From Nitrosospira briensis C-128 (GTDB taxonomy: Bacteria > Pseudomonadota > Gammaproteobacteria > Burkholderiales > Nitrosomonadaceae), in NCBI RefSeq assembly GCF_000619905.2, contig NZ_CP012371.1, positions 682,001 through 746,000 on the forward strand: a stretch of DNA of 64,000 nt. Direction: 5' to 3'. The notes under the pieces are model-generated. The model had not been told where the DNA came from. It searched no databases and saw only the letters and a program-made list of their open reading frames with translations. The position numbers were made by a program, and so were the translations under genes. Positions 691-42,862 of this stretch are shown in pieces; the first letter of the stretch is position 1; the number at the start of each line of letters is the position of its first letter.

Positions 691-870
691 GTTATTTCAA
701 TCCTTCCAATGAAGTGATATAGCGAACTGCGCGGAACCGAGTTCAACCAAAACGTTACGCTTTCTACCCTATTTCCGCAAACCCCTTCCCCTTGCCTGAG
801 TCAGGGACAGAATCCTGGCAGGCCTCTCACCGCCGCAAAAATCAGGTATATCGCTCGCCGAGCCCATTAT

Positions 871-1255
871 CCTAAATCCGGTAGTTGACCGCTCATTTAA
901 TAGATCAGTATTATGATTAATAACAATATTTCATATTATTTGACGCTCACCTTCCGGGTAAGGGCGCTACGGGGCGAATTGCACGGTTTTTGCGGCACAT
1001 GGCTGCGATGCAACTTCTTGGAATGGAACGGCGCCCCGAAGCGTCGCCCGAGGACCCCGCGAAGCGGGGATCGGACAGCGCAGGGGATGCCGCGATCGCG
1101 TTCCGCACGCAAGGGGGCGCCCGCATCCCGCTTCGGGGTCGCACCTTCCTGCGGAAGGCACTGCTCCGCCCTGCGCGGTCGCATTCCGCGTCGTTGCGCC
1201 TTGCCCTGCACCACAAAAACCGTACACTTCACCCCGTCCATCTACCGGATTCAGG
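871..1255 (+). mobile_element. MITE-like element family A, copy 1 (385 bp)
   Basis: A non-coding 385-bp unit whose ends are inverted repeats: CCTAAATCCGGTAGTTG on the left and its complement, with two mismatches, on the right. It is flanked by a perfect 5-bp direct repeat ATTAT (866-870 and 1256-1260), as expected for a target-site duplication. The inside has an AT-rich arm of about 65 bp on the left, then a GC-rich part with long imperfect subterminal inverted repeats (around 965-1000 and 1205-1240) and strong hairpins such as GACCCCGCGAAGCGGGGATC. The right-hand duplication contains the TAA stop codon of rluC. A second copy in reverse orientation lies at 41298-41682. Open frames inside it are by-products of GC-rich inverted sequence. 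Confidence 0.88.
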
Positions 1256-1256
1256 A

Positions 1257-2285
1257 TTATGGGCACAAAGGCGTACTATCGGCATCCAGCTCAAGCAAAA
1301 ATTTGCGTAGGTCTTCCGCCAGCGGCGCCTCAATACGAAGCTTTCTCCCGGTTACCGGATGCGTAACTTCGATGATAAAGGCATGCAGGAACATGCGCTT
1401 GAGACCTCGTTCGGGGCCAAGCCTCATCAGTTCCCTGTTCAATGCGAAGTCTCCATACTTATCGTCGCCTGCTATGGGGAAATCCAGATGAGCGAGATGC
1501 ACGCGAATTTGATGAGTACGGCCCGTTTTTAACTCCGCTTCCAGCAGACTGAAATTCTGCCAGGATTTTTTCAGATTAAAAACGGTGTGAGAGCTCTTTC
1601 CCTCTTCGCTTCCTTTCCCATCGGCAATCACCGCCACGCGCCGTTCGCCCGCGGGCGTCACGTATTTCCTGAGAAACAGCTTGACGCTTTGTCTCGTATT
1701 GCGCCAATTGCCTTTTACCAGCGTAAGGTACCGCTTTTCCATCATCCCTGCACGGATCACCCGGTGCAATTCAACGAGCGCAGCCCGGTTCTTGGCCAGG
1801 AGCAAAATCCCGGAAGTCTCCCTGTCGAGGCGATGGACCAGTTCCAGAAATTTCCAGTCGGGGTGCTGGGCGCGTAATTGCTCGATGACACCGAAACTCA
1901 CGCCGCTGCCACCATGCACTGCGACTCCCGCAGGCTTATTGATGACGATAAGGGCTTCGTCCTCAAATAAGATTTCGAATGGAATAAATTGGCTTTTAGT
2001 TACTTTCTTTCTGGGTGCAGAACTTCTTTCCGCCATCCTCACCGGTGGTATACGTACCATATCGCCCAGTTGAAGATGACAATCCGCACCGATGCGCTTG
2101 CTGTTAAGTCGAACCTGCCCGCTTCGCAATAGCTGGTAGATATGACTTTTAGGCACATTTTTCAGGCGTTTGATCAAGAAATTATCGATACGCTGACCTT
2201 TACTGTCCTCGCCTATAATTTCTGTAACCGCCGGACTCAGAGGAAATTCTTTGCCTAAATCCTTAGTTCTACTTATACTTGCCAA
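1257..2285 (-). CDS. rluC: 23S rRNA pseudouridine synthase RluC
   Basis: Pseudouridine synthase of the RluA family; in E. coli RluC makes pseudouridines 955, 2504 and 2580 of 23S rRNA. The 342-residue protein has an N-terminal S4 RNA-binding domain (about residues 30-85) and a catalytic domain with HRLDRETSG, whose Asp154 is the family's catalytic residue. The gene is divergent from rne, the same pairing as in E. coli, which supports RluC rather than RluD. Its TAA stop (1257-1259) lies inside the target duplication of the adjacent repeat element, so the element inserted at the stop without altering the protein. The first 12 or so residues are variable in the family and the start could be slightly downstream. 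Confidence 0.93.
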   Translation of the reverse strand: MASISRTKDLGKEFPLSPAVTEIIGEDSKGQRIDNFLIKRLKNVPKSHIYQLLRSGQVRLNSKRIGADCHLQLGDMVRIPPVRMAERSSAPRKKVTKSQFIPFEILFEDEALIVINKPAGVAVHGGSGVSFGVIEQLRAQHPDWKFLELVHRLDRETSGILLLAKNRAALVELHRVIRAGMMEKRYLTLVKGNWRNTRQSVKLFLRKYVTPAGERRVAVIADGKGSEEGKSSHTVFNLKKSWQNFSLLEAELKTGRTHQIRVHLAHLDFPIAGDDKYGDFALNRELMRLGPERGLKRMFLHAFIIEVTHPVTGRKLRIEAPLAEDLRKFLLELDADSTPLCP

Positions 2286-40770: not shown

Positions 40771-41274
40771 TCAATGGCGATTGCGCGCGGCAAATAAAAT
40801 ATACACCCCTAAACCGCCAAAAATCATGAAAAAAATTGCGGACCAGTCCGGAAGCGTGAGCAATGCGAACTGCCAGGTGACATCGGCACAATCCCCATTT
40901 GCTTCAAACATGCTGGGCCACCATTGTGCCAACGGCAACGCGTTCAGGAACTTTTCCTCGGGACTGATACCGCATTCGAATGCCTCGGGAAAGCGCACCA
41001 GCCACGCCTGACGCAAAGCAACCGCCGCTCCGGAGAATGCAAAGACAGCCATCAAGCCGCTGTATATTCCCGACCCTTTTGCGCGGGGAGAGTGAAAAAA
41101 TGCCAATAGCGCGATTAATCCGACCAGCCAATACGCAACGCGCTGAACGACACAAAGCGGACAAGGCAACAGGTTCTTTACCAGCTGTAGATAAAGGGCA
41201 TAACTGACCAGGCTGGCGCAACCGAGAAATATCGATAGAAAAATGACTCTTGTTCCTGGTTTCATGCGGCTCAC
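40771..41274 (-). CDS. dsbB: Disulfide bond formation protein DsbB
   Basis: Four-span inner-membrane protein that reoxidises DsbA and passes electrons to quinone. 167 residues. The first periplasmic loop has the redox pair CPLC (Cys38/Cys41). The second loop has FECGISPEE and NGDCADVTW, giving the second cysteine pair. Hydrophobic segments lie at about 10-30, 45-62, 68-88 and 140-160. A second ATG three codons in is also possible. A family A repeat element begins 24 bp upstream of the start, so the promoter must lie in or across that element. Confidence 0.93.
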   Translation of the reverse strand: MSRMKPGTRVIFLSIFLGCASLVSYALYLQLVKNLLPCPLCVVQRVAYWLVGLIALLAFFHSPRAKGSGIYSGLMAVFAFSGAAVALRQAWLVRFPEAFECGISPEEKFLNALPLAQWWPSMFEANGDCADVTWQFALLTLPDWSAIFFMIFGGLGVYILFAARNRH

Positions 41275-41297
41275 ATGACCCGGCTTAAAGGGTTTAA

Positions 41298-41682
41298 CCT
41301 AAATCCGGTAGTTGGACGGGGTGAAGTGTACGGTTTTTGGGGTGCAGGGCAAGGCGCAACGACGCGGAATGCGACCGCGCAGGGCGGAGCAGTGCCTTCC
41401 GCAGGAAGGTGCGACCCCGAAGCGGAATGCGGGCGCCCCTTTGCGTGTGAAGCGCGATCGCGGCATCCCCTGCGCTGCCCGATCCCCGCTGCGCGGGGTC
41501 CCTCGGGCGACGCTTCGGGGCGCCGTTCCATTCCAAGAAGTTGCAACGCAGCCATGTGCCCCAAAAACTGTGCAATTCACCCCGTAGCGCCCTCACCTGG
41601 AAGGGGCGCGTCAAATAATATAAAATATTATTATTAATCATAACTTTGATCTATAAATGAGCGGTCAACTACCGGATTTAGG
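41298..41682 (-). mobile_element. MITE-like element family A, copy 2 (385 bp)
   Basis: Inverted copy of the element at 871-1255, identical in length (385 bp). The ends are a perfect 17-bp inverted repeat, CCTAAATCCGGTAGTTG. Flanking 5-bp direct repeats TTTAA (41293-41297 and 41683-41687) mark the insertion. The right-hand duplication contains the TAA stop codon of rlmL, so the gene is untouched. The AT-rich arm here faces rlmL; the GC-rich arm faces the dsbB promoter side. Hairpins such as CCTTCC-GCA-GGAAGG are kept in both copies. No transposase is encoded. Confidence 0.9.
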
Positions 41683-41683
41683 T

Positions 41684-42862
41684 TTAATCGGGCTGCTGGC
41701 TGACGTCGGTTTTCTTCACCCTTCGCATTCCGCCCGGTACCATTTTATATTCCAGCAAGCGGCATTCCAGCGCACCGTTGAATAACGGAACACGGCGCGA
41801 GGGTGTCAAGCGTATGAGTTTTGGCAGAAACGGGTCGGCGGTGAAAATATAAGCATTCCATCCACTGAATTTTTTCTTCAGGACGTCCCCCAGCTTCGGG
41901 TAAAACTCCGCGAGTTCCTGCTGCTCACTTAAACGTACCCCATAAGGGGGGTTGGTTACGAGAAATCCGGAAGCCGCAGGTGCGGAAATTTCCAGCAGGT
42001 TCGCCTGCTTGAGCGTCACCGTTTCAGAGAAGCCCGCGGCAGTTAGATTCGCACGCGCGACGGCAACCGCATCCCCATACAAGTCACTGCCGAAAATCGG
42101 CTGGAGCGTTCTCGGTTTCTGCCGTGCCAACGCTGCTTCTTTAACCTGCTCCCATTGCCCTCTATCAAAGCTCGCCAGTTTTTCAAAAGCAAAGCTGCGG
42201 CCTAGCCCCGGCGCGATATTCAATGAAATTTGCACTGCTTCGAGCAAAAATGTGCCGCTGCCACACATTGGATCGAGCAGTGGAATGCCTGGCTGCCAAC
42301 CCGCCAAGGCCAGAATCCCGGCGGCAAGGTTTTCTCTTATGGGCGCTTCGACGGTATTTTTTCTGAGGCCGCGCTTGAATAAGGCATCGCCAGAAGTATC
42401 GATATATAAGGAAAATTCCCGGGCATCCAAAAAGCCATGAATGCGAATATCCGGTTGCATCGTATCGACACTGGGACGGCAGCCAACCGTACTGCGAAAT
42501 TTATCGCAGACCGCATCCTTGATCTTGAGCGTGACAAAATCCAGGCTGCGTAGGGGGCACTTGATGGCAGCCACATTGACCCGAATCGTTGAAGCCGGGG
42601 CAAACCATTCATTCCATGGCAATGCACGGGCTGTTTCGTACACATCGGCTTCGCCGACGTAGGGGTTGCGCGCCACCCGCCAAAGAATTCGACTGGCGAT
42701 GCGGCTTTCCATATTAGCCCGGTAGCAGGTTTGCCAGTCACCCTGGAACTGGACCCCGCCGTCGCACGCCTTTGCAAAAGAGGCCCCAAGCTGCTCCAGC
42801 TCGGCCACGAGTGTCGGTTCCAGTCCTCGCGGGCAGGGGGCGAAAAAATAGTAAGGCGTCAC
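41684..42862 (-). CDS. rlmL: 23S rRNA (guanine-N2)-methyltransferase RlmL-type, THUMP domain
   Basis: A 392-residue class I SAM-dependent RNA methyltransferase corresponding to the N-terminal half of E. coli RlmKL, which makes m2G2445 in 23S rRNA. THUMP RNA-binding domain at about residues 45-160, then the methyltransferase domain with PLLDPMCGSGTFLLEA (SAM loop), GSDLYGDAVAVARANL and the catalytic NPPYGVRL. The RlmK half is absent, which is normal outside gammaproteobacteria. The TAA stop lies inside the target duplication of the adjacent repeat element. Confidence 0.9.
   Translation of the reverse strand: MTPYYFFAPCPRGLEPTLVAELEQLGASFAKACDGGVQFQGDWQTCYRANMESRIASRILWRVARNPYVGEADVYETARALPWNEWFAPASTIRVNVAAIKCPLRSLDFVTLKIKDAVCDKFRSTVGCRPSVDTMQPDIRIHGFLDAREFSLYIDTSGDALFKRGLRKNTVEAPIRENLAAGILALAGWQPGIPLLDPMCGSGTFLLEAVQISLNIAPGLGRSFAFEKLASFDRGQWEQVKEAALARQKPRTLQPIFGSDLYGDAVAVARANLTAAGFSETVTLKQANLLEISAPAASGFLVTNPPYGVRLSEQQELAEFYPKLGDVLKKKFSGWNAYIFTADPFLPKLIRLTPSRRVPLFNGALECRLLEYKMVPGGMRRVKKTDVSQQPD

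What the first reader, a model, noticed from the sequence alone, without database searches (positions are those of the whole stretch)
871..1255. A 385-bp MITE-like family inserted on stop codons, with perfect target duplications
Seen: two copies (871-1255 and 41298-41682), same length, opposite orientation, ends CCTAAATCCGGTAGTTG as inverted repeats, flanked by ATTAT and TTTAA 5-bp duplications. In both cases the duplication contains the TAA stop of a gene (rluC, rlmL) and reading is preserved. Both hosts are 23S rRNA modification genes, which may be chance. Inference: a transposase elsewhere in the genome mobilises it.
Basis: partly seen in the sequence, partly recalled or inferred. Interest (0 to 1): 0.7.

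Follow-up and report, generated by a model that had tools for sequence, protein, structure and literature searches.

The report
Orphan jumping repeat from IS1380 family
A short DNA parasite without genes of its own, present in dozens of copies in a soil ammonia-oxidising bacterium, carries the end signal of a known class of jumping gene and lands on a five-letter site that holds a stop signal on one strand, so some copies sit harmlessly at the very ends of genes.

Summary
Window 871-1255 and 41298-41682 are copies of one mobile element with 17-bp inverted ends and perfect 5-bp duplications holding the TAA stops of rluC- and rlmL-like genes. By exact size the genome is Nitrosospira briensis C-128. 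In stretches fetched around listed end hits, 68 end pairs (70-388 bp) were found: 40 have identical 5-bp flanks, all 40 reading WTNAW. Both window sites lack the element in all 22 congeners searched; the nearest has one ATAAT at rluC.

The mobiliser class was identified. A 1639-bp insertion sequence in another family of the order shares one end (15 of 16 bases), a very similar 5-bp target, and encodes a divergent IS1380-type transposase. No relative of that transposase was found in this genome: an orphan MITE.

The stop-codon link is real but partial. The core TNA always spells TAA or TGA on one strand. A quarter of non-interrupting own copies overlap a called gene stop, against 6.5% of comparable sites; most copies lie elsewhere. 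The 23S-gene coincidence is probably chance. The 385-bp form is a 236-bp MITE with a ~150-bp hairpin-rich unit in its tip; that unit also occurs alone and in tandem in relatives.

The parts
866..870 (.). left copy of the target duplication, ATTAT
   Evidence: read from the sequence
871..1255 (+). MITE copy 1, long form (385 bp)
   Evidence: not next to the rluC stop in 22 of 22 congeners
871..887 (+). left terminal inverted repeat CCTAAATCCGGTAGTTG
888..945 (+). AT-rich arm; a promoter-like match 885-914 overlaps it (1 found in the scanned stretch, 0.3 expected; weak)
1031..1181 (+). nested GC-rich ~150-bp unit in the tip of the 236-bp MITE
   Evidence: missing from short copies; alone or tandem in relatives
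1239..1255 (-). right terminal inverted repeat, 2 mismatches
1256..1260 (.). right copy of the target duplication ATTAT; bases 1257-1259 are the rluC stop TAA on the minus strand
1257..2285 (-). rluC-like 23S pseudouridine synthase gene, open to its stop
41293..41297 (.). target duplication TTTAA (TTAAA on the minus strand)
41298..41682 (-). MITE copy 2, long form (385 bp), perfect 17-bp ends
   Evidence: not next to the rlmL stop in 22 of 22 congeners
41372..41523 (-). nested ~150-bp unit of copy 2
41683..41687 (.). target duplication TTTAA; bases 41684-41686 are the rlmL stop
41684..42862 (-). rlmL-like 23S methyltransferase gene, open to its stop
40771..41274 (-). dsbB-like gene on the far side of the insertion from rlmL; in nearest relative G009 the same downstream sequence follows the rlmL stop directly

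Best explanation
It is a non-autonomous miniature element (MITE) of the IS1380 family, 5-bp-target branch. A DDE transposase of that branch, supplied in trans by an element now missing from this chromosome, recognised the CCTAAATCCGGYAGTT ends and joined them to staggered cuts at a near-palindromic WTNAW site, giving the 5-bp duplication. Because the site core TNA reads TAA or TGA on one strand, an insertion on a gene's own stop rebuilds that stop and leaves the protein whole; purifying selection then leaves an excess of copies at stops. The 385-bp form is the 236-bp MITE, probably the older form, with a ~150-bp unit added at the apex of its hairpin. Shown: ends, duplications, target rule, empty sites, autonomous relatives with a matching end and target. 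Inferred: that such a transposase moved these copies, that it was lost, and that selection rather than targeting explains the stop excess.
For: In 85 own-genome stretches (0.30 Mb), 68 end pairs were taken without asking for a duplication: 40 have identical 5-bp flanks, 18 differ at one base, 10 at two or more; 40 of 40 identical flanks are WTNAW, a motif at 2.0% of window positions. With relatives added, 63 of 63 intact duplications are WTNAW, 59 of them ATNAT or TTNAA. Nearest congener G009 reads cccATAATAGGC at rluC, one target copy and no element; the element is next to the stop in 0 of 22 congeners at rluC and 0 of 22 at rlmL. Partner: G115 has a 1639-bp IS with outer end CCTAAATCCGGCAGTT; 5 of 6 uninterrupted copies have identical flanks (ATAAA twice, TTCAT, TTGAG, TTAAT) and a 473-bp derivative is flanked by TTGAT. 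That end equals the window's end at 15 of 16 bases, and 7 of 130 own ends match it exactly. Its 495-aa protein hits PF13701 (8.8e-24, over cut-off) and NCBIfam IS1380 (2e-44). In a 12-row tree it groups with IS1380 elements of 5-bp duplication, support 91/87. A second, decayed element with this end lies in G082, matching the window end at 16 of 17 bases.
Against: No intact partner was found in the own genome, so mobilisation is inferred from matching ends. Similarity between the MITE and the partner is confined to the ends apart from chance-level hits and one weak 55-base hit (71%, E 0.001) of a short copy: the MITE is not a simple deletion of this IS. The partner's other end is CCTATTTCCGGCAGTT. 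Its IS1380 profile score, 152 bits, is under NCBIfam's cut-off of 180. One of its duplications, TTGAG, breaks WTNAW, as does CTCAT of another 5-bp element. The tree support is under the program's own mark of 95/80, and one 5-bp row sits elsewhere on a very long branch. 10 of 68 end pairs have flanks with two or more differences. At rlmL the nearest relative reads CAA where this genome has the TAA stop.
Confidence: 0.9

Rival explanations
1. The element is actively directed to gene ends, for example through translation termination, transcript ends or hairpins, rather than being left there by selection.
For: Stop overlap is 14 of 56 non-interrupting own copies against 56 of 855 other WTNAW sites (odds ratio 4.8), and 14 of 37 against 53 of 967 in relatives (10.5). 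The excess remains inside a 60-bp 3' zone: 14/28 against 46/207 and 11/15 against 48/175; in a 30-bp zone it is 14/23 against 46/122 (p 0.06) and 11/15 against 48/123 (p 0.014).
Against: Most copies are not at stops (34 of 58 own copies intergenic). Selection against hits in genes and 5' regions predicts the same direction. Seven elements of G115 examined (six full-length, one derivative) show 2-40 open codons before a stop in the site, in flanks as short as 218 bases: inconclusive.
Confidence: 0.12
2. Tn3-derived miniature element (TIME), which also leaves 5-bp AT-rich duplications.
For: 5- or 6-bp AT-rich duplications are reported for TIMEs (passages of PMC4133298).
Against: A full-length element with a matching outer end encodes an IS1380-type DDE transposase; the ends do not look like 38-bp Tn3 ends (recalled).
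Confidence: 0.02
3. A non-mobile palindromic repeat (REP/BIME-like) spread by recombination or by a Y1 transposase.
For: Folds better than shuffles, z -4.3; the own genome has 11 Y1-transposase matches at E 0.001.
Against: Target duplications with one consensus and empty sites; only 1 of 30 Y1 loci has the nested unit nearby.
Confidence: 0.03

Closest known systems
IS1380 family insertion sequences with 5-bp duplications (e.g. IS1247, 1672 bp, 5-bp repeats, table passage in PMC3281130; ISEcp1 recalled)
   Same: CC-starting ends, AT-rich 5-bp duplication, related transposase in the partner
   Different: No transposase; 70-388 bp; strict WTNAW in 63 intact duplications
BrickBuilt MITE of Porphyromonas gingivalis (PMC4596501; abstract and outline seen)
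   Same: A MITE that contains a unit able to be tandem
   Different: 23-bp minisatellite there; a ~150-bp hairpin-rich unit here, also found outside the MITE
TIMEs, Tn3-derived miniature elements (PMC4133298; passages seen)
   Same: Short, gene-less, 5-bp AT-rich duplications
   Different: Different ends and transposase family
piggyBac superfamily, for which IS1380 served as outgroup (PMC10813416; passages seen)
   Same: Stop-containing palindromic target: TTAA there, TTNAA/ATNAT here
   Different: Eukaryotic; an analogy only, not tested here

Membership tests
MITE | short and without a transposase gene | tested here: met
   70-388 bp; 2 ORFs of copy 1 scanned, no Pfam hit; the third ORF over 100 aa of copy 1 and those of copy 2 were not scanned
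MITE | terminal inverted repeats | tested here: met
   17-bp ends; 68 end pairs
MITE | target duplication and empty sites | tested here: met
   58 of 68 pairs with at most one mismatch; empty in 22 of 22 congeners at both loci
MITE | ends shared with an autonomous element | tested here: met
   G115 1639-bp IS: 15 of 16 bases of one end; 7 of 130 own ends identical to it
MITE | mobilised in trans by that transposase | not testable with these tools
   needs a transposition assay
IS1380 family (as derivative) | partner transposase is IS1380 type | tested here: met
   PF13701 84 bits, cut-off 34.7; NCBIfam IS1380 best hit but 152 bits under its cut-off of 180
IS1380 family (as derivative) | 4- to 5-bp duplication, CC-starting ends | tested here: met
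   IS1380 elements of the order whose ends could be read show both
IS1380 family (as derivative) | intact source element in the same genome | tested here: not met
   only a piece at 2695897-2696218; no partner match
Tn3 TIME | Tn3-type ends and transposase | tested here: not met
   partner is IS1380 type; Tn3 ends themselves recalled, not aligned
REP/BIME | association with Y1 (RAYT) transposase | tested here: not met
   1 of 30 Y1 loci carries the nested unit

The most novel reading that the evidence does not exclude
The 5-bp branch of IS1380 has a target shaped like a stop codon on either strand (WTNAW), a safe-landing rule that rebuilds the stop it strikes; the MITE adds a second, separately mobile hairpin unit that colonises the tips of several foldback elements. 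The same logic may hold across IS1380: the eight 4-bp elements whose ends I could read sit at YTAR sites (CTAG, TTAA, CTAA, TTAG), which also hold TAA or TAG on a strand.
Probability: 0.2. Interest if true: 0.65.

Novelty: new member of a known kind. Interest (0 to 1): 0.42.

Why it matters
It links a high-copy repeat of an important soil nitrifier to a transposase class, gives a tight target rule for the 5-bp branch of IS1380 (a family that includes movers of resistance genes, recalled), and shows a simple way in which target choice can make insertion at gene ends harmless. It also explains a source of spacer change between Nitrosospira genomes, including one insertion between rlmL and a dsbB-like gene.

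Tried and rejected
Rfam over the window at gathering thresholds found only a tRNA. Plasmid collection, distant mode: no match. IS1380 loci of relatives and of the order were checked for these ends; the readable ones had other ends. The IS1380 piece in the own genome has no matching ends in the 3.2-kb stretch read. A link between the nested unit and Y1 transposases was tested and dropped. Terminator scan: none around copy 1 (0.5 expected) and one beside copy 2 (1.3 expected); promoter-like matches, one in each copy (0.3 expected each), are weak. In the tree one 5-bp row (G192) sits on a very long branch. Paper searches: Nitrosospira with miniature inverted repeats, 0 papers; Nitrosospira with transposase and IS1380, 0; IS1380 with MITE terms, 391 and 833 papers at two terms, of which 20 and 25 listed; MITE, stop codon and target site, 18 listed; stop codon with regenerated target duplication, 0. 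None of the listed titles is about this element; the 2024 review of prokaryotic MITEs has 0 occurrences of 'stop codon' and 'IS1380'. The library holds open-licence papers only, so absence from print is not shown.

Full report
Observation. Copies at 871-1255 (+) and 41298-41682 (-) are real, each 385 bp, with ends CCTAAATCCGGTAGTTG (the right end of copy 1 has two changes) and perfect duplications ATTAT and TTTAA. The stop codons of the rluC-like gene (1257-1259) and the rlmL-like gene (41684-41686) lie inside a duplication.

Host. The window lies in a 3,210,113-base single-contig genome, the exact size printed for Nitrosospira briensis C-128, CP012371, in Table 3 of PMC4964001 (passages seen); the name is inferred from this. 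The main text of that paper has 0 occurrences of 'transpos' and of 'insertion sequence'. A genome-collection scan with a 28-base end pattern gave 59 stretches; by record title all are Nitrosospira, Nitrosovibrio or Nitrosomonadales except one MAG labelled Nitrococcus.

Family. One search gave 51 matches with 40 of 103 candidates scored. The 14-base end with up to 2 mismatches matched 164 places (part of them listed) against 16 for the reversed pattern. I worked on 85 own-genome stretches around listed sites, 0.30 Mb. In them 68 end pairs (at most 2 mismatches an end, 60-450 bp apart) were taken without any duplication criterion: 29 of 345-390 bp, 19 of 235-237 bp and 20 of other sizes from 70 to 327 bp; two of the pairs (298365, 298403) share a right end. 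Flanking 5-mers are identical in 40, differ by one base in 18, by two in 7, by three in 1 and by four in 2. All 40 identical ones are WTNAW; the motif fills 2.0% of window positions. The list of sites was capped, so the genome may hold more.

Target. Pooling own and relative copies chosen with at most one flank mismatch (58 own of 65, 38 relative), 63 duplications are intact; all are W-T-N-A-W and 59 are ATNAT or TTNAA. TNA is TAA or TGA on one strand whatever N is, so every such target holds a stop on some strand; this is arithmetic on the motif.

Stop codons. With a home-made dicodon gene caller (window coding fraction 0.76-0.80; the paper gives 85.93% for the genome), the 58 own copies are: 34 intergenic, 14 with a called stop wholly in the duplication, 2 partly, 6 at a called start and 2 inside a gene. 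Other WTNAW sites in the same stretches: 739 intergenic, 56 stop, 7 part, 53 start, 2316 inside. Leaving out 'inside', that is 14/56 against 56/855 (odds ratio 4.8, p 3e-5). In relatives it is 14/37 against 53/967 (10.5, p 2e-8) (loosest threshold; the two stricter ones give 5.1-5.6 and 9.8-10.8). An earlier run with a simpler caller on all 65 own copies gave 14/63 against 46/1166 and 11/37 against 48/1282; within 60 bp of a gene's 3' end it gave 14/28 against 46/207 and 11/15 against 48/175, and within 30 bp 14/23 against 46/122 (p 0.06) and 11/15 against 48/123 (p 0.014). Caveats: missed genes inflate the background, relatives are not independent, and selection alone could give this. So there is an excess at stops in these data, but most copies are elsewhere.

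Empty sites. In 22 of 22 congeners neither the rluC nor the rlmL stop has the element next to it; a few single end-like matches and, in G016, one pair lie more than 100 bases away. In the nearest, G009 (93% and 89% identical over the two flanks; two of its contig lengths, 631,898 and 272,063, equal records of Nitrosospira sp. Nsp11), rluC ends cccATAATAGGCTCGG with one target copy. At rlmL G009 reads GATCAACTCCTGTAA where this genome has GATTAAACCCTTTAA once the element is left out, so the TAA used here is not the stop of the relative. Of 8 G009 copies examined, 1 shares its site with a copy among my 65 own ones, a lower bound because the own list is partial; both window insertions are younger than that split or were lost there.

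Partner. Among 399 genomes drawn from the order, the exact pattern CCTRAATCCGGYAGTT occurs in 9. In G115, another family, it marks a 1639-bp element. Nine stretches with ten such left ends were fetched: six uninterrupted full-length copies (flanks ATAAA, TTCAT, TTGAG, TTAAT and ATAAA identical, and one pair TTAAA/ATAAA), one 473-bp derivative flanked by TTGAT, one further full-length copy split by another inserted in it (outer flanks GTGAT/GTTAA), and two left ends without a right end in the stretch. TTGAG is outside strict WTNAW. Its 495-aa protein matches PF13701 over the cut-off and NCBIfam IS1380 under it. The outer end equals the window's at 15 of 16 bases, and 7 of 130 own ends equal it exactly; the interiors share nothing beyond chance-level hits and one weak 55-base hit. 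The other end is CCTATTTCCGGCAGTT. G082 has a decayed element with the end matching at 16 of 17 bases, flanks TTAAT/TTAAA, and a transposase 35-54% identical in two frames. Among 61 genomes of the genus, family and order searched with the partner protein, hits were the differently ended G016 element (30% identity), pieces in G003 (36-40%, with stops), G032 and G002, and none in the own genome; G041, a MITE-bearing genome of the family, has a shortened gene 46% identical over 365 residues. The own genome holds only a piece of an IS1380 gene. Other IS1380 elements of the order fall into some with 5-bp duplications (TTAAT, TTCAT, ATTAA, CTCAT) and some with 4-bp duplications (CTAG, TTAA, CTAA, TTAG). 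In a 12-row tree the partner groups with three 5-bp elements and the G041 gene, support 91/87, under the program's own mark of 95/80; a fourth 5-bp row, G192, sits outside on a very long branch.

Nested unit. Short copies lack bases equivalent to 1031-1181. In relatives that stretch stands alone or in tandem (G010, period 149, 3.2 copies; G016, 2.8 copies), twice in tandem inside one MITE (G013), and inside a second foldback repeat. An own 236-bp copy (596585) and its G009 counterpart (386 bp) share one insertion site, flanks 93% and 95% identical over about 700 bases each, so the unit was gained or lost in place. A 237-bp copy in another family of the order (G167) suggests that the short form is older. 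Of 86 distinct units, 34 thinned ones give a consensus fold of -13.5 kcal/mol against -5.3 (sd 2.9) for 100 column shuffles, with a C-G (13) to U-A (14) exchange at one pair of the best hairpin; modest evidence only.

Verdict. A new, well-supported member of a known kind: a MITE of the IS1380 family's 5-bp branch, without a source element found in this genome.

Noticed in passing
window 1031-1181 and 41372-41523; L110:2028-2510, L115:1734-2150, L127:1460-1993, L119, L121, L123: A ~150-bp GC-rich hairpin-rich unit lives in the MITE tip, alone, in tandem arrays, and in a second foldback repeat with CTGAACAAATC-like ends in Nitrosospira relatives; how it moves is unknown.
   Followed up: partly
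G000:C1:596585-596820 versus L349:1202-1587: Same insertion site in two genomes, one with the 236-bp and one with the 386-bp form: in-place gain or loss of the unit, perhaps by gene conversion.
   Followed up: partly
window 41275-41687: The insertion lies between rlmL and a dsbB-like gene whose sequence follows the rlmL stop directly in the nearest relative; effect on expression unknown.
   Followed up: no
G000:C1:2695897-2696218: C-terminal piece of an IS1380 transposase in two frames, without matching ends in the stretch read.
   Followed up: partly
own genome, 11 places: Eleven Y1 (IS200/RAYT-like) transposase matches in the own genome.
   Followed up: partly
G115 contig C1; L236:263-3545: Two different 5-bp IS1380 elements (ends CCTAAATCCGG and CCCAAATTTCCC) live in one genome, and one copy of the former sits inside another.
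   Followed up: no
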